Of a stretch of 64,000 bases of DNA, positions 33,178-38,826 are shown piece by piece; the first letter of the stretch is position 1; each line of letters opens with the position of its first letter. Made by a program: the position numbers and the translations under genes. Under the pieces are notes generated by a model. That model saw only the letters and a program-made list of their open reading frames with translations. It was not told where the DNA came from and did not search any database. The stretch is from an uncultured bacterium. GTDB lineage: Bacteria > Bacillota > Clostridia > Oscillospirales > Oscillospiraceae. The stretch is taken from the NCBI GenBank assembly GCA_946548895.1, contig CAMNQF010000010.1:1-64000 (forward strand), written 5' to 3'.

Positions 33178-33287
33178 ATGGGGCCGGCGATGGCTTTCAT
33201 CCTGCCGCCGCCAGCATACGAAGCTGGAAGGGCGGCTTGGCGGAATGAATTAAATGCAATCCCGCATACCGCGAATGGAAAATAATC

Positions 33288-33316
33288 TCGACTTTACAAC
33301 AAAGATATGCTATACT
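33288..33316 (+). promoter_or_regulatory. Likely promoter of the HD-RyR/TIR/channel cassette
   Basis: TCGACT (33288-33293), 17 bases, TATACT (33311-33316). The -35 is a weak match. The MITE lies between this promoter and the first gene of the cassette. Confidence 0.5.
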
Positions 33317-33334
33317 AAATTTGCCGTATTTTAA

Positions 33335-33494
33335 GGAACCTCTGAACAAATGCGTCTGCGGCGCATTGCGGATCTTTTTCGCCACAACTTCGTTGTGATT
33401 TCTTGAAATAAACACAATTATTCCTGCGAAATCCCGCCTCGTTGCGGCGAAAAATCTCTCGCAAATCGCTCGTGCCGATTTATTCAGAGGTTCC
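33335..33494. mobile_element. 160-bp MITE with IS5-like ends
   Basis: Terminal inverted repeats GGAACCTCTGAACAAAT (left) and GGAACCTCTGAATAAAT (right end, complement) match at 16 of 17 positions. The element is flanked by TTAA on both sides (33331-33334, 33495-33498), a target duplication of the YTAR type made by IS5-family transposases. It has no coding capacity and contains several small inverted repeats. Confidence 0.85.
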
Positions 33495-33569
33495 TTAATT
33501 GTGGATATTTTGGCAAAGCGCGGAGACTGCGGAGCCCTTTGAGAAAAGAAAACTTCGTGGAGGTATGGC

Positions 33570-35579
33570 ATGGGTTACACAAACGTGAGAGAGCCGGCGA
33601 GGCAATACGAGGCTTTCAGCCTGGAGGGAGCCGCGTTGACGTTCCTTCGGGACCGTTGTGAGGGCTTGCGGTTCAGTGCCGGAAAGGCCGAGGAGGAAGC
33701 TCGGACGGGCAAACTGCTGGGGACCAGCCTCAAAAAGGGAGAAGTCCCTTATCATCAGCAGATGGACACAGACCGGCTGTGCCTGGAAAATGCCCTTCGG
33801 CGCTTCCTGCGTTCCGGGCGGAAGGAAGACGCCTTCGACGTGTATTTTTGCTACCTGGAGATGTTCGTGGGGGACTATAAAAAGGCGAAACGGATGATTG
33901 AACTGCTGTCAGAGTTTGAGGCAAATGGCAGCGGCCTCTTGATGAAGCACCGGGACCACTACGCCCACTCGGTCTATGTCTTCGCCCTGGGCCTGGCCGT
34001 CTATCAGACCAGCGAGGCCTACCGGAACGCCTATCAGGAGGCCTATCAGCTGGATGACAGCCATCCGGCTGCCTGCCACTTCCTGCGTTTCTGGGGTATG
34101 GCATCCCTTTTCCATGATATTGGCTACCCGTTTGAACTGCCCTTTGAACAGGTGGCTTCCTACTTCGAAGTGGAGGGAGAACCGCGGAAAAACCGGCCTT
34201 TCGTAGCCTACCGGGCGTTGGAGCCCTTTGTGAAGATCCCTGATTCCGTGGTAAAGCGGCTGGAAACCCTTTGCGGCGGCGCCGTTTACGAAACCACCGA
34301 CGGGCTGTTTGCCGGCCTTCTGGCTGAAAGGCTGGGAGAGAAGTACCGCTTTACGGAACTTCAGATGCTCCAGGTCCTTCGTGAGAAGCCTGCGGAACCG
34401 AATCGGTTCGGCTATTATATGGACCACGCCTATTTCAGCGCCACCGTGCTGTTTAAAAAGCTTTTCTGCGAACTGAACTGCCCCATGGAGCGGGAACACC
34501 TGGACGCGCTCACCGGCATTCTGGCCCATAATAGCCTCTACAAATTCAACATTGCGCATTACAAGGACAGGGGAAACACCCCGCTGGCCGCCTCTGACCA
34601 CCCGCTGGCCTATTTGCTGATGCTCTGCGACGAACTTCAGTGCTGGGACCGCACCGCCTATGGACGCAACTCTAAGAGAGAGCTGCATCCGATGGGGTGC
34701 CGGTTTGATTTCAGCGGCGGGGCCATCCGAGCCACCTACCTCTATGACAAGCGGGAGTTCGGGAAGATCAAGGTCTATCAAGACAACTACAAGGCCTGGA
34801 AGGACCGGGAACCGGCGGAGAAGAACTCGGAGGAGCACAAGCTCTGGGAGGATAAGAAGCCGGGACTGAAGGCGTATGCCAGTATGTACGAGATCAACAA
34901 GCAAGGCGTTTCCAGCTTTCAGGCGGACATTGAGCGGATCGTGGACCTGAGCGCCATCCGGCTCCAGGTGGGAACGGAGCTGGAAAAAAATGAGAAACAA
35001 CGCTGCTATCTCTCCGACAGCAGTTTTCTTGGGCTGTATAACTTTGCCATCGTGCTGAATGCCCGCTGGAGCAGCGGGGAGTGGAAACAAGCCCGGGCGG
35101 AGGGCCGGGAGGAGCAGTTCCTGCTGGACGAGAAAAACCTGGAGAGGTTCTCCGGCAGCTTCGAGGCCCTTTCCTTGGAATACCAGCTTTCCAATATCAA
35201 TCAGGCCAAGGCCTTTGCCCGGTATATGCAGGAAATCGGCTGCTTCTACACTGACCGGTCCGTGGACTTTGCGCTGGTGGACCGCTTTTCGGACGAGGAG
35301 CTGGATATCATCGGTCCTCTGGAGCACCAGCGCTGGCTCCAGGAACACTACGATATGGGCTGGACCTACGGCACCCCGGAGCGGGCGCAGCGGGAGCGGG
35401 TCCGGCAGCATTGGGATATGATCCCCGGCTGGACCGGGACGGTTGTCCCTATGGAGCTGGCAGAGAAAAATTACAGGCGTTTGAATCCCGATGAGCAGTC
35501 AAAGGACACCGAACCCATGGAATGTATGCTGGCGATGATGCGTATGTTTGACGGGCTGCGCATCTACCGGCTGTACTGA
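33570..35579 (+). CDS. HD-domain protein with C-terminal RyR domain
   Basis: The 669-residue protein has a complete HD-type metal-binding set: His in HRDHYAHSVYVF (about 131-142), the HD pair in SLFHDIGYP (about 187), His in GILAHNSLYKFN and Asp in LMLCDELQCWDR (about 350-360). The C-terminal 90 residues match a RyR domain: LEHQRW, MGWTYG, an H-x-DMIP segment and LAEKNYRRLNPDEQSKD. HD enzymes usually cleave phosphate esters of nucleotides; prokaryotic RyR domains are proposed nucleotide sensors. GGAGG is six bases before the ATG. The TIR gene follows 23 bases after the stop. The role as part of an immune-type system is inferred. Confidence 0.83.
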   Translation: MGYTNVREPARQYEAFSLEGAALTFLRDRCEGLRFSAGKAEEEARTGKLLGTSLKKGEVPYHQQMDTDRLCLENALRRFLRSGRKEDAFDVYFCYLEMFVGDYKKAKRMIELLSEFEANGSGLLMKHRDHYAHSVYVFALGLAVYQTSEAYRNAYQEAYQLDDSHPAACHFLRFWGMASLFHDIGYPFELPFEQVASYFEVEGEPRKNRPFVAYRALEPFVKIPDSVVKRLETLCGGAVYETTDGLFAGLLAERLGEKYRFTELQMLQVLREKPAEPNRFGYYMDHAYFSATVLFKKLFCELNCPMEREHLDALTGILAHNSLYKFNIAHYKDRGNTPLAASDHPLAYLLMLCDELQCWDRTAYGRNSKRELHPMGCRFDFSGGAIRATYLYDKREFGKIKVYQDNYKAWKDREPAEKNSEEHKLWEDKKPGLKAYASMYEINKQGVSSFQADIERIVDLSAIRLQVGTELEKNEKQRCYLSDSSFLGLYNFAIVLNARWSSGEWKQARAEGREEQFLLDEKNLERFSGSFEALSLEYQLSNINQAKAFARYMQEIGCFYTDRSVDFALVDRFSDEELDIIGPLEHQRWLQEHYDMGWTYGTPERAQRERVRQHWDMIPGWTGTVVPMELAEKNYRRLNPDEQSKDTEPMECMLAMMRMFDGLRIYRLY

Positions 35580-35602
35580 GCTATGGGGAGAGGAGGATGA
35601 AT

Positions 35603-37225
35603 ATGGCAGCGGAACTGGTTGGACTGGAATATTTGAGGCGAAACGAAATCAAGAACAAATCCTGTGACGCCTCACGTCCCTACGCGTTTATCAGCTACTC
35701 CCACGACCCCCGCGACGCCCAGATTGTGATGAACGTTTTCAATGTGCTCTATAACAAGGGCTACAATCTTTGGATCGACATCGCCAATATGCCCCACGAC
35801 GAGAACGCCTGGAGCGACTGCGCCATCGGGGCCCTGCGGAACAAAAGCTGTTCCTTCGCCTTTTTCTTCCGAAGCGAGAGCTCCATGAGCAAGGAGACCA
35901 TCGCCAAAGAATTGGAAACCATCAAGCGCCTCCGCCATGTGCGCCGTATTGTGACGGTGGATATCTGGCATGACGAGGAGAACACGGCGGACCGCTATTA
36001 CGATGAGCTGCTCAACAGCGATGACGACAGCGCCATGAAGTTCAAAGCCTGCGAACGCATCTGCAACATCGTCAGTATGGCCAATTCCGCCATCCGGCTG
36101 GCGGCGGATGTCCAGAACGATATCCCCAAGCTCGCGGAGTTCATGGAAGAGGAGCTGCTGGAACTGGGCGTTTTGCCCCTCACGCATGGCGATGGGCTTG
36201 ACAGCGGGGTGGAGGCAACGGGGATTAAGCGGGCGCGGCCGCAGCCCCTGGGGGCGGCGGCCAACGGGCAGGAGGCGCCCGCGGAAACGGCGCAGCCGCC
36301 TGTCCCGGCCGGTGAGGAAGCCAATCCGCCGGGGAACGGCGCAATTCGGACGATCACCTTGCCGGATTTCATGAGGCAATACGGCCCGAATACCTTTGTA
36401 AAGAACACATTTCACAGCGTCCGGCTGGTTGGCAAGGGGGAATATGCCAAATATAACTCCGGGTTCTACCAGTCAACCTATCCCCTGGTCTGGAACTTTG
36501 TCGAAGGCCTGCTGAAGGAGCGGGGCGCGGCGTACATTCGGTTTGTCAATGAGCGGAACGCCGGGAGCAAGAACCCGCCCTTCATTACGGCGGAGGAGCA
36601 GCGGCGGCGGAAAGCGGCGGGAAGCAATGTGGCCTACCGCTGTCTGGAGGTACCGGGGCTGGAGAGCTGGGCCATGTGCATCCACTATGGACAGTATGCC
36701 TGGATCAACGACGTTCTCCGCAAGCGGATGCTGGAGCTGGACCTGCCGCTGGACGGTTTTTCGCTGGAGCACACCACAGGCCAGACGGAGAAAAACAAAT
36801 CCACAGAGGTCACGGTGCCCGCCGGCGGCATCGCGGGGCCGGAGCATCTGGATGGCAAAGGCGGAAAACAGAGAAAACGGGCCCTGGAGGAAGGCGGCTA
36901 TCACATCACCCTGTTTGGGGAGTACTGCCCTGGGTTGAGCCTGAAAAATATGATGCTGGCTGTGTTCAAAAAAACGCTGGGCCGCCACCCGGACAAGCTG
37001 GACCTGCTGCTGGAGGATCTGCCCTGCCTGGGCGAAGGGATCGAAATCAGGCGTGACGCCCATCCCTCGACCTTCCGTTCCGGGGAATCCGTTGCAATTG
37101 GCGGCCGGAGCATATCAATTGGTACCTCTCTGGGCCAGTCCCAAGTGCTGAACTATATCGGCCGCCTGATGCAAATATGCGGCGAGCCAAAAGAAAACCT
37201 GGTCATCAGCGGCTATGACTACTGA
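35603..37225 (+). CDS. TIR-domain protein with unrecognised C-terminal domain
   Basis: The 540-residue protein has an N-terminal TIR domain (about 20-160): PYAFISYSHDPRDA, a GYNLWIDIANMP box, AWSDCAIGALRNKSCSFAFFFRSES and a following SKETIAKELETI helix that offers the Glu expected of NAD-cleaving TIRs. A Pro/Ala/Glu-rich linker (about 200-255) leads to roughly 285 residues that I cannot assign, beginning ITLPDFMRQYGPNTF and ending VLNYIGRLMQICGE. The start is taken as the ATG at 35603, six bases after AGGAGG; the ATG at 35597 abuts that site. It lies between two RyR-containing genes and may be the signal-making or NAD-depleting component. Confidence 0.82.
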   Translation: MAAELVGLEYLRRNEIKNKSCDASRPYAFISYSHDPRDAQIVMNVFNVLYNKGYNLWIDIANMPHDENAWSDCAIGALRNKSCSFAFFFRSESSMSKETIAKELETIKRLRHVRRIVTVDIWHDEENTADRYYDELLNSDDDSAMKFKACERICNIVSMANSAIRLAADVQNDIPKLAEFMEEELLELGVLPLTHGDGLDSGVEATGIKRARPQPLGAAANGQEAPAETAQPPVPAGEEANPPGNGAIRTITLPDFMRQYGPNTFVKNTFHSVRLVGKGEYAKYNSGFYQSTYPLVWNFVEGLLKERGAAYIRFVNERNAGSKNPPFITAEEQRRRKAAGSNVAYRCLEVPGLESWAMCIHYGQYAWINDVLRKRMLELDLPLDGFSLEHTTGQTEKNKSTEVTVPAGGIAGPEHLDGKGGKQRKRALEEGGYHITLFGEYCPGLSLKNMMLAVFKKTLGRHPDKLDLLLEDLPCLGEGIEIRRDAHPSTFRSGESVAIGGRSISIGTSLGQSQVLNYIGRLMQICGEPKENLVISGYDY

Positions 37226-37431
37226 GGAGAATACCCGGTGACCGGCCCTACCGGTACGCGCTTTCAGGAGCTAGCGGACCGGCGTTTTCACCATCGTGGG
37301 ACAGATAGATCCATGCGGAGCGCTGGCACAGTTTCCTCCTGAGGTAGCTGCCCGCTGCTCTTCCCCGCGGCGGCGGAGGCGGGCCTGGGCGTCAAGGACC
37401 TGATGGACCGCTATGGAAGGAGGCTTTGCGT
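37226..37431. other. Short gap with possible gene remnant
   Basis: About 200 bases between the TIR and channel genes. No convincing gene is present. One frame (37347-37440 region) reads LLFPAAAEAGLGVKDLMDRYG, protein-like but without a start, and may be debris. The channel gene's ribosome site AAGGAGG is at 37417-37423. Confidence 0.5.
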
Positions 37432-38826
37432 TTGCGCGGAATCGGGAAAATGCTGAAAAAATGGGCCCCTGTACTCAGCGTCTTGCCCTTTTTGCTGGGA
37501 TCGGTGGGCTACGCTCTGGCGGGGGAGCGTCCGTTGGACGCGATGTATGACAGCTTCAGCCTCTATTTTGTGAACCTGGTGTCAGACAGCTCCAACCCCC
37601 TTGTGGAGATAGCCCGCTGGACGGCGGCCCTGGTGACTACCGCCGCGGTAATGTACGTGCTGAAACAAGTTTGGACCCGGTTAAGCTGGGCGGTGCTGTG
37701 CCTGGGGCGGGACAGCGTAGCGGTATACTGCGATGGGGAAGAGCGTGTGCAATTCCCGGACAAGGAACACAGCGTCATCTATCCGGGCCGGGAGTTCCGG
37801 CCCGGCGCCAAGTCCCATATCATCATGCTGGAGAGCGACTGTGAGAGTCTGGCTTTCTATGAGGCCAACCGGGACCGGCTGCGGGGCCATTCGGTGTATA
37901 TCGGCCTGCGGGAGCTGGACAAGGGCTTTATGCGGGATGTTCCCGGCGTTGTCTTCTACGACATCAATGGCGCCGCGGCCCGGACGCTGTGGAAAACGCT
38001 CCGATTGTGGCGGCTGGGCCGTGAACGGCTCACTGTGGTAATCTGGGGCGGTGGACACCTGGGGCAGAATATCCTGGATTATGGGCTGCTGCTGAACTTA
38101 TTTGCCCCCGATCAGGAGATTGCGTATCATCTGGTTGGGGATACCGCGCTGTATCAGATTAACCGGGAGCGGTTCCTCAGCGGGAACGCGGATACGGTTT
38201 CCTTTCATGACTGGGACAGCGCCCCGGCCTGGGAAGCGGTCCGGCGGGCGGATGTTGTGATTCTGGCGGAGGAATCCCCGGCGGAGCGGCTCCAGGCGCT
38301 GCGGATTGCCTGCGAAAGCGGAGTGGTGTACTACTATGCCCCCCAGGAGGCGGATGTTGGGAGGTATTTCAATTTTTCTCGCCTGCACGCCTTTGGAAAA
38401 GGACTGTATACCGATGAGAACATCCGCGGCGAGGCGCTGACCCGGCAGGCCAAAGCCCAGAATTATGACTATGCCAAAACTTATGGGCATCTCGCGCCAG
38501 AGGAAACGGCGGACGGGGCCTGGAAGAAGCTGGACGGCTTTACCCAATGGTCCAACATCTCCTCCACGGACTTTCAGGAGGTACTTCCAGACATTCTGGC
38601 AGCTCGTCCGGCCTTGACCGAGGAGGCGCTGGCGAAGTTGGAGCACCTCCGCTGGTGCCGGTTTCACACCCTGAATGGCTGGCGATATGGCATTCCTGAG
38701 AGCGGGAGCCGGGATGTAGAGAAACGGCGCCACAAGTGCCTGTGTCCATATGAGGAGCTGGAGCCGGAAGAGCGGGAGAAGGACCGGCTGGTGGTGCGCC
38801 GGGCGCTTTCACACGTGCGCGGTTGA
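37432..38826 (+). CDS. Two-TM channel-like protein with RCK/TrkA-like and RyR domains
   Basis: The roughly 464-residue protein starts with two TM helices (about 8-27 and 60-80) around a short loop (DAMYDSFSLYFVNL), the TM-P-TM layout of simple ion channels without a recognisable TVGYG filter. A cytosolic Rossmann/RCK-like part follows: SHIIMLESDCESLAFY, then VVIWGGGHLGQNILDYGLLL with a nucleotide-binding Gly cluster. The C-terminal 70 residues are a RyR domain: LEHLRWCRFHTLNGWRYG, then PYEELEPEEREKDR. Start: TTG at 37432, eight bases after GGAGG; an ATG at 37450 is possible. It is likely a membrane effector gated by a nucleotide signal (inference). Confidence 0.75.
   Translation: MRGIGKMLKKWAPVLSVLPFLLGSVGYALAGERPLDAMYDSFSLYFVNLVSDSSNPLVEIARWTAALVTTAAVMYVLKQVWTRLSWAVLCLGRDSVAVYCDGEERVQFPDKEHSVIYPGREFRPGAKSHIIMLESDCESLAFYEANRDRLRGHSVYIGLRELDKGFMRDVPGVVFYDINGAAARTLWKTLRLWRLGRERLTVVIWGGGHLGQNILDYGLLLNLFAPDQEIAYHLVGDTALYQINRERFLSGNADTVSFHDWDSAPAWEAVRRADVVILAEESPAERLQALRIACESGVVYYYAPQEADVGRYFNFSRLHAFGKGLYTDENIRGEALTRQAKAQNYDYAKTYGHLAPEETADGAWKKLDGFTQWSNISSTDFQEVLPDILAARPALTEEALAKLEHLRWCRFHTLNGWRYGIPESGSRDVEKRRHKCLCPYEELEPEEREKDRLVVRRALSHVRG

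What the first reader, a model, noticed from the sequence alone, without database searches (positions are those of the whole stretch)
33570..38826. HD-RyR / TIR / channel-RCK-RyR cassette: candidate nucleotide-signal immune system
Seen: three genes in one direction encode an HD-domain protein ending in a RyR domain, a TIR protein, and a two-TM channel-like protein with RCK/TrkA-like and RyR domains. Known: bacterial TIR enzymes cleave NAD and can make cyclic ADP-ribose-type signals (Thoeris); HD enzymes often act on nucleotides; prokaryotic RyR domains have been proposed as nucleotide-signal sensors in conflict systems. Inference: TIR makes a signal, the RyR-channel senses it and disrupts the membrane, and HD-RyR senses or degrades it. 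I recognise no named system with this gene set. It lies beside a MITE in an accessory region.
Basis: partly seen in the sequence, partly recalled or inferred. Interest (0 to 1): 0.92.

Follow-up and report, generated by a model that had tools for sequence, protein, structure and literature searches.

The report
Bacterial TIR and ryanodine-receptor-domain signalling operon
A gut bacterium carries linked genes for a TIR protein of the kind that makes NAD-derived alarm signals and for two proteins ending in a ryanodine-receptor (RyR) domain, one of them channel-like; because this pairing recurs in many bacteria, it looks like an unrecognised immune signalling system that may bear on how RyR domains sense such signals.

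Summary
In detail: three + strand genes encode HD-RyR (33570-35579), TIR (35597-37225) and two-TM/RCK-like/RyR (37426-38826) proteins. A pattern scan of 84,980 species genomes gave 291 stretches encoding relatives of gene 1. Of 83 gene 1 loci examined, 56 hold a TIR gene, 37 of 44 where 5 kb or more is held on both sides; 21 carry gene 3 relatives or other TM-RyR proteins. Drawn by RyR alone, TIR_2 lies within 10 kb in 6 of 9 Bacillota genomes and for 12 of 27 order-level RyR proteins, against about 1-3% expected. The gap between genes 2 and 3 holds remains of a PD-(D/E)XK gene that is intact in sister loci. A 2026 preprint shows phage RyR domains binding or cleaving 2'/3'cADPR (PMC13232231); its four pocket residues are conserved here. 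Best reading: a Thoeris-like system in which TIR makes an ADPR-type signal that RyR domains on an HD protein and a channel-like protein read. Ligand, activity and phage defence are untested; defence-island enrichment was not shown.

The parts
33273..33316 (+). conserved upstream block ending in a promoter-like site (TCGACT-17-TATACT with TG before the second hexamer)
   Evidence: 86% identical over 44 bp to L033 upstream of its HD-RyR gene; promoter-like match 33288-33316, a consensus match only
33331..33498 (.). 168-bp element with 21-bp terminal inverted repeats, lying between the conserved upstream block and gene 1
   Evidence: single copy in the draft genome; the spacer between the two conserved blocks is 228 bp here and 62 bp in L033, the difference fitting the element (coordinates)
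33570..35579 (+). gene 1: HD-RyR protein, 669 aa
33858..34979 (+). HD-type helical domain of gene 1 (about residues 97-470; H133, H182, D183, D354)
35001..35576 (+). RyR domain of gene 1 (residues 478-669; H586, W589, H614, D646)
35597..37225 (+). gene 2: TIR protein, 542 aa
35678..36016 (+). TIR domain; putative catalytic E105 (codon 35909-35911)
   Evidence: E at this column in 48 of 73 aligned TIR domains
36899..37213 (+). C-terminal unannotated domain of gene 2 (residues 435-539), found 1-3 times in 14 proteins of RyR loci
   Evidence: no PDB match, no Pfam match in the window copy
37226..37425 (+). remains of a PD-(D/E)XK nuclease gene that is intact at this place in sister loci
   Evidence: 3' end: 24 of 26 bases match L053's gene, score 42 against a maximum of 33 in 300 mononucleotide shuffles; N-terminal words in order in other frames, weaker: that half alone does not exceed its shuffles
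37426..38826 (+). gene 3: two-TM / RCK-like / RyR protein, 466 codons from TTG
37426..37701 (+). TM1 - short helix - TM2 (residues 1-92), no TVGYG filter
37708..38445 (+). RCK/TrkA-like Rossmann domain (residues 95-340)
38500..38823 (+). RyR domain of gene 3 (residues 359-466; H407, W410, H436, D453)

Best explanation
A Thoeris-like immune signalling operon that uses RyR domains as the signal receptor. Step 1 (inferred): the C-terminal part of the TIR protein senses an invader or a cell disturbance. Step 2 (inferred from the family and E105): the TIR domain converts NAD into an ADP-ribose-type signal, perhaps 2'cADPR or 3'cADPR. Step 3 (inferred from conserved RyDEP pocket residues and recurrent linkage): the RyR domains of the HD protein and of the channel-like protein bind it. 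Step 4 (inferred): the HD domain becomes an active nucleotide hydrolase and the two-TM/RCK protein opens or clusters in the membrane, so the cell stops growing or dies before a phage can spread. The PD-(D/E)XK nuclease of sister loci would be a third arm, lost here. Shown: gene structure, domain content, residue conservation, recurrent TIR-RyR linkage. Not shown: signal, binding, activity, phenotype.
For: TIR in 56 of 83 HD-RyR loci, 37 of 44 with 5 kb or more on both sides, 32 of 83 within 150 bp on the same strand (my own TIR profile, seeded with TIR proteins of RyR loci); after clustering gene 1 at 80% identity, 26 of 33 clusters with such flanks. RyR-only draws judged by Pfam alone: TIR_2 within 10 kb in 6 of 9 non-window Bacillota genomes and for 12 of 27 RyR proteins over the cut-off in the order (8 of 13 long, 4 of 14 short; distances read by hand), where 89 TIR_2 hits in about 72 Mb predict about 2.5% a site. 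TIR and RyR lie in one polypeptide in L018. RyR recurs on different outputs: HD, RCK-type channel, AAA, and one that reads as RelA/SpoT-like. Membrane proteins alternate: TM-RyR in 21 loci, SLOG-TM in 16, both in 0 of 83. H, W, H, D of the RyDEP pocket (PMC13232231) are invariant in 52 of 52 HD-RyR proteins; the four-residue pattern is in 16 of 21 TM-RyR proteins, two of the five misses being cut by contig ends. TIR sensor ends vary: LRR, WD40, TPR/Sel1, NACHT-type.
Against: No experiment. 7 of 44 well-flanked HD-RyR loci have no TIR found; one of them (L045) has a DUF4062-STAND protein instead. In the order sample 15 of 27 RyR proteins over the cut-off, and all five genomes with sub-cut-off matches only, have no TIR_2 within 10 kb; several proteins of about 580-640 aa stand without TIR (L155, L156, L157, L159, L161), as does a channel homologue (L123). 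HD-RyR and TM-RyR distances are not clearly correlated (Spearman 0.20, reached by 118 of 999 permutations), though TM-RyR and TIR are (0.42, 0 of 999). E at the catalytic column is absent in 10 of 56 TIR loci. PADLOC hits near the loci were not clearly more than farther off or in control regions. The K+ filter is absent, so the pore is inferred only. Human RyR3 Repeat12 has been solved with ATP, ADP and AMP-PCP (entry titles), so adenine nucleotides are alternative ligands.
Confidence: 0.6

Rival explanations
1. HD-RyR is an off-switch: its RyR domain holds, and the RyR or HD domain destroys, the TIR signal, so that only the channel (or SLOG-TM protein, or nuclease) is an effector.
For: RyDEP, a phage RyR protein, is a glycosidase that cleaves 2'/3'cADPR (PMC13232231), and its catalytic pair H/D is invariant in HD-RyR. 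HD enzymes hydrolyse nucleotides (general knowledge).
Against: Some loci hold HD-RyR and TIR with no other effector recognised nearby: 15 of 83 loci have TIR, 5 kb or more on both sides, and neither TM-RyR nor SLOG-TM by my clusters; two of the 15 (L037, L060) have the nuclease and one (L016) a broken TIR gene, which leaves 12; L120 and L121 are further pairs. Diverged effectors could be missed. The catalytic pair is reported as conserved in non-cleaving phage homologues too (PMC13232231), so it does not decide.
Confidence: 0.28
2. The RyR domains sense ordinary adenine nucleotides (ATP, ADP, AMP) and the system reports energy or NAD state; the TIR acts as a NADase or scaffold.
For: Solved RyR3 Repeat12 structures hold ATP, ADP or AMP-PCP (entry titles); GsuK, a structural relative of the channel, was solved with ADP or NAD (entry titles).
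Against: Does not explain the recurrent TIR linkage or the TIR-RyR fusion as well as a TIR-made ligand does.
Confidence: 0.12
3. A TIR-RyR signalling system with a role other than phage defence (plasmid exclusion, prophage control, stress or envelope response).
For: Defence-island enrichment was not shown; one HD-RyR copy is in an IMG/VR contig and one in an 8.3-kb unverified 'Bacteriophage sp.' record with an open TIR gene beside it.
Against: Patchy distribution (8 of 394 order genomes match gene 1, only 4 of them, the window's included, over long stretches), mixing of families and of phylum labels of MAGs on the tree, varied sensor-like TIR ends and a PADLOC candidate-defence nuclease partner look like defence.
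Confidence: 0.2
4. Chance neighbours with unrelated functions.
For: Single-genome view only; the exact order varies.
Against: Linkage counts in three separately drawn samples and a fusion.
Confidence: 0.02

Closest known systems
Thoeris (ThsB TIR + ThsA), types with SIR2-SLOG or TM-macro effectors
   Same: A TIR protein beside an effector that joins a nucleotide-sensor domain to an output; TM-macro ThsA is also a membrane effector (PMC11204291, abstract read).
   Different: Sensor here is RyR, not SLOG or macro; outputs are an HD domain and a two-TM/RCK channel-like protein; no SIR2, SLOG or macro family among the Pfam matches of the three proteins. SLOG appears in alternative loci (family f3). 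Other Thoeris types (one called type VI in PMC13232231) are described in a preprint that is not held.
RyDEP, phage RyR-domain anti-Thoeris proteins (PMC13232231)
   Same: RyR (PF02026) domain with the same H, W, H, D pocket residues; spacing in the L122 channel is identical (+3, +25, +42; counted by hand on the sequence).
   Different: RyDEP is a phage counter-defence protein; here RyR ends bacterial multidomain proteins beside a TIR gene.
GsuK, MthK, CASTOR, Trk/Ktr RCK channels and gating rings
   Same: Two TM helices with a short helix between, then an RCK-like Rossmann domain.
   Different: No TVGYG-type filter in 27 of 27 sequences; C-terminal RyR domain.
Animal ryanodine receptors (Repeat12 domain)
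   Same: RyR domain homology on a membrane protein.
   Different: Two-TM/RCK-like architecture of 466 aa, against chains of up to about 5000 residues (lengths).
PADLOC candidate PDC-S26
   Same: The PD-(D/E)XK protein of sister locus L038 matches PDC-S26 models, E 1.3e-31.
   Different: In the window only remains of this gene are left; genes 1-3 match no PDC-S26 model.

Membership tests
Thoeris | TIR (ThsB) protein encoded beside the effector | tested here: met
   TIR_2 E 2.5e-6; gene 2 starts 18 bp after gene 1
Thoeris | Effector (ThsA) with SIR2-SLOG or TM-macro domains | tested here: not met
   No such Pfam family in genes 1-3 at E up to 1; PADLOC gives ThsB-like hits for the TIR only
Thoeris | TIR makes an NAD-derived signal that the effector binds | not testable with these tools
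   needs enzymology; E105 present
Thoeris | Protects against phage | not testable with these tools
   no phage assay; defence-island comparison not discriminating
RyR domain family (PF02026) | Profile match, gene 3 | tested here: met
   34.3 bits, cut-off 27.4; E 2.4e-12 to RyR1 chimera by profile
RyR domain family (PF02026) | Profile and fold match, gene 1 | tested here: met
RyDEP-type RyR pocket | H75, W78, H100, D117 equivalents | tested here: met
   invariant in 52 of 52 gene 1 sequences; four-residue pattern in 16 of 21 TM-RyR proteins, window included
RyDEP-type RyR pocket | cleaves or binds 2'/3'cADPR | not testable with these tools
   needs protein
HD hydrolase superfamily | H...HD...D metal-site motif | tested here: met
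   H133, H182, D183, D354 invariant in 52 of 52
HD hydrolase superfamily | fold | tested here: inconclusive
RCK-gated K+ channels | RCK fold behind two TM helices | tested here: met
RCK-gated K+ channels | TVGYG selectivity filter | tested here: not met
   0 of 27 sequences, first 110 residues scanned

The most novel reading that the evidence does not exclude
Prokaryotic RyR domains are a general receptor for TIR-made ADP-ribose signals, carried on interchangeable outputs (HD hydrolase, RCK-type channel, AAA, RelA/SpoT-like, TIR fusion), and gene 3 is a bacterial cADPR-gated RyR-domain channel; [quoted passage not shown]
Probability: 0.3. Interest if true: 0.95.

Novelty: new variant of a known kind. 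Interest (0 to 1): 0.84.

Why it matters
It would add a receptor domain (RyR) and two outputs (HD hydrolase, RCK-like channel) to the TIR immune signalling known from Thoeris, explain what phage RyR sponges may be competing with, and give small, testable bacterial proteins for the old question whether RyR domains on channels respond to cyclic ADP-ribose.

Tried and rejected
Chance neighbours: rejected by linkage counts. A strictly co-inherited three-gene cassette: not supported; HD-RyR and TM-RyR distances are only weakly correlated, and arrangements vary. A K+-selective channel: filter absent. Defence-island enrichment: PADLOC at E 1e-10 on 89 near proteins, 89 far proteins and 89 proteins from 20 control regions gave hits in all three sets (28, 74 and 49 families, the first 25 shown of each), with no clear excess near the loci; inconclusive. 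(Pools were 109 near and 126 far; 90 of each were drawn, and I left one row out of each before scanning; the control set is 89 of 191, from six genomes and including two regions of the window's own contig.) Identity of the TIR-linked C-terminal domain: no PDB match; weak scattered Pfam hits only. Gene 1 on plasmids, gene 3 on plasmids, gene 2 in phage records, gene 3 in viral contigs: no match. Empty site: the gene after the operon has matches in 3 of 31 genus genomes, the window's included; I did not inspect those loci, so no empty site was shown. Literature: Burroughs 2015 (NAR) and Yirmiya 2025 (bioRxiv, TIR systems) are not held, so I cannot say that neither describes RyR partners. Library searches for RyR with TIR, Thoeris, SLOG or PF02026: none; PMC13232231 alone; with PMC8295901 (axon degeneration, listing only); with PMC7789669 (Pseudomonas putida, listing only); one search found 159 papers at 4 of 5 terms and listed 15, none on this subject by title. 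Other searches. Papers: PMC13232231 outline, parts 1-2 of 6 of the text, legends, first part of the references, and a term search; PMC9503650 passages by term search; PMC7159879 and PMC7824862 term searches with no RyR found; PMC11204291 abstract and outline.
Full report

A FOURTH GENE, LOST HERE. In 10 of 83 loci a 405-452 aa protein of one family follows the TIR gene; L038's copy is PD-(D/E)XK (PDDEXK_4 E 4.6e-14; PADLOC PDC-S26 E 1.3e-31). 8 of these 10 loci also have the RyR channel, in the order HD-RyR, TIR, nuclease, channel. The 200-bp gap between genes 2 and 3 of the window holds the 3' end of that gene (24 of 26 bases match L053; score 42, highest of 300 mononucleotide shuffles 33) and, in other frames, words of its N-terminal part (this half alone does not exceed its shuffles). 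So the window operon has most likely lost its nuclease by internal decay, while its other three genes keep the codon-position pattern of constraint.

LINKAGE. A pattern scan of 84,980 species genomes found 291 stretches encoding a relative of gene 1; 80 loci were kept. With the window, one IMG/VR locus and one more genome locus (L016) this gives 83 loci. My TIR profile, seeded with TIR proteins of RyR loci, finds a TIR gene in 56 of 83, in 37 of 44 with at least 5 kb on both sides, and within 150 bp on the same strand in 32 of 83. Clustering gene 1 at 80% identity leaves 56 clusters, 37 with TIR; of 33 clusters with well-flanked loci 26 have TIR there. TM-RyR proteins (19 gene 3 relatives, window included, and two others, L043 and L055) occur in 21 of 83 loci, 18 of these with TIR; the other three are L045, which has a DUF4062-STAND protein, and the short contigs L054 and L059. 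In four of the 21 the TM-RyR gene is on the opposite strand beside gene 1, yet still linked. On the gene 1 tree (quick method; 46 rows in neither group not counted) the TM-RyR loci and the SLOG-TM loci each need one change. Genomes have few TIR_2 genes: 1-3 in each of nine genomes with HD-RyR.

RYR DRAWN ALONE. To avoid choosing loci by gene 1, I searched for PF02026 itself and judged TIR by Pfam. In the phylum sample 10 of 398 genomes have RyR; in 6 of the 9 other than the window's a TIR_2 domain lies within 10 kb (G658, G720, G509, G704, G786, G536), two (G623, G742) have no TIR_2 match but a protein that reads as DUF4062-like near the RyR gene (named from its N-terminal sequence, not by Pfam), and in one (G554) the channel homologue stands alone. 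In the order sample 32 of 394 genomes have RyR; of 27 RyR proteins over the cut-off outside the window, 12 have TIR_2 within 10 kb: 8 of 13 long proteins and 4 of 14 of about 100 aa; 15 do not, and neither do the five further genomes with sub-cut-off matches only (distances read by hand). With 89 TIR_2 hits in about 72 Mb the chance for one site is about 2.5%, so about 0.7 of 27 would be expected. The sites include a RyR-TIR fusion (L018, RyR 4.2e-18 and TIR_2 8.8e-12); channel + TIR + AAA-RyR in one direction (L122); channel + TIR without HD-RyR in the DNA held (L153, L154); and HD-RyR + TIR pairs (L120, L121). The RelA/SpoT-like, SLOG and AAA labels of L119 and L122, and the LRR look of the L120 TIR protein, are read by eye from the sequences; AAA in the RyR protein of L017 is by Pfam.

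SENSOR ENDS AND OUTPUTS VARY. TIR proteins of gene 1 loci end in LRR, WD40, TPR/Sel1 or NACHT-type parts, or, as in the window, in a 105-aa domain found 25 times in 14 proteins of these loci and L122, 13 of them TIR proteins, which matches nothing in the PDB sequences and nothing in Pfam in the window copy. In 16 loci a protein of another family lies beside or near gene 1 instead; the copy tested (L097) is SLOG plus TM (YAcAr 7e-6, DUF4231 7e-5, both just under the Pfam cut-off). No locus of 83 has both it and a TM-RyR protein. This is the behaviour expected of a common signal read by exchangeable receptors.

LIGAND. PMC13232231 (preprint, May 2026) reports that phage RyR-domain proteins bind 2'cADPR and 3'cADPR, one of them cleaving both, with H75, W78, H100 and D117 in the pocket. 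In the L122 channel the equivalents have exactly the same spacing (+3, +25, +42; sequence, counted by hand); in the window channel they are H407, W410, H436 and D453 with four extra residues in one loop. Conservation cannot tell binding from cleavage, because the paper reports non-cleaving homologues of high sequence conservation.

MECHANISM AND WEIGHT. I put 0.6 on a TIR-made ADPR-type signal read by both RyR proteins, in defence. The HD protein as effector rests on loci where it and TIR stand without a recognised other effector: 15 well-flanked loci have neither TM-RyR nor SLOG-TM; two of them (L037, L060) have the nuclease and one (L016) a broken TIR gene, which leaves 12, and L120 and L121 are further pairs. 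The off-switch reading keeps 0.28. Results against: seven well-flanked HD-RyR loci without a TIR found, one with a DUF4062-STAND protein; RyR proteins without TIR; 10 of 56 TIR loci without Glu at the catalytic column; weak distance correlation of genes 1 and 3; and a defence-island comparison that did not discriminate.

NOVELTY. The plan of the system is that of Thoeris; the receptor and outputs are not those of the Thoeris types I could read about (PMC11204291 abstract). By that effector definition it is not a member; it may still work like one. In the held library, searches joining RyR to TIR, Thoeris, SLOG or PF02026 gave PMC13232231 and two papers seen only as listings, on axon degeneration and on Pseudomonas putida; the parts of PMC13232231 that I read and a term search did not mention RyR effectors of bacteria beside TIR genes. 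Two papers that could, Yirmiya 2025 and Burroughs 2015, were not held. The window genome is of the same genus as G019, whose contig equals that of Pseudoflavonifractor capillosus An386a in length and locus.

Noticed in passing
window 33331-33498: 168-bp element with 21-bp terminal inverted repeats between the conserved upstream block and gene 1; one copy in the draft genome, none in the other loci held at that time.
   Followed up: partly
L119 (9814-12408, -): 864-aa protein that reads as RelA/SpoT-like synthetase + SLOG + RyR, beside a small HD-like protein and near a TIR protein: a possible alarmone output under RyR control.
   Followed up: no
L018 (8796-10805, -): TIR and RyR in one polypeptide, with hydrophobic stretches.
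   Followed up: partly
window 36899-37213 and alignment A7: Unannotated 105-aa domain repeated 1-3 times at the C end of RyR-linked TIR proteins.
   Followed up: partly
L166 (MT836912.1) and L016: An 8.3-kb faecal 'Bacteriophage sp.' record carries HD-RyR with an open TIR gene (708 codons) beside it; the chromosomal locus L016, whose HD-RyR start looks closely similar by eye, has the TIR gene broken (stop inside) and lies beside what looks like a long repeat (CRISPR-like) region.
   Followed up: partly
(e.g. L163, L164, L165): Stand-alone RyR proteins of about 100 aa, some directly beside TIR genes (4 of 14 within 10 kb); host or prophage sponge-like proteins are possible.
   Followed up: no
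L155, L156, L157, L159, L161: RyR proteins of about 580-640 aa, hydrophobic at the N end by eye, with no TIR nearby.
   Followed up: no
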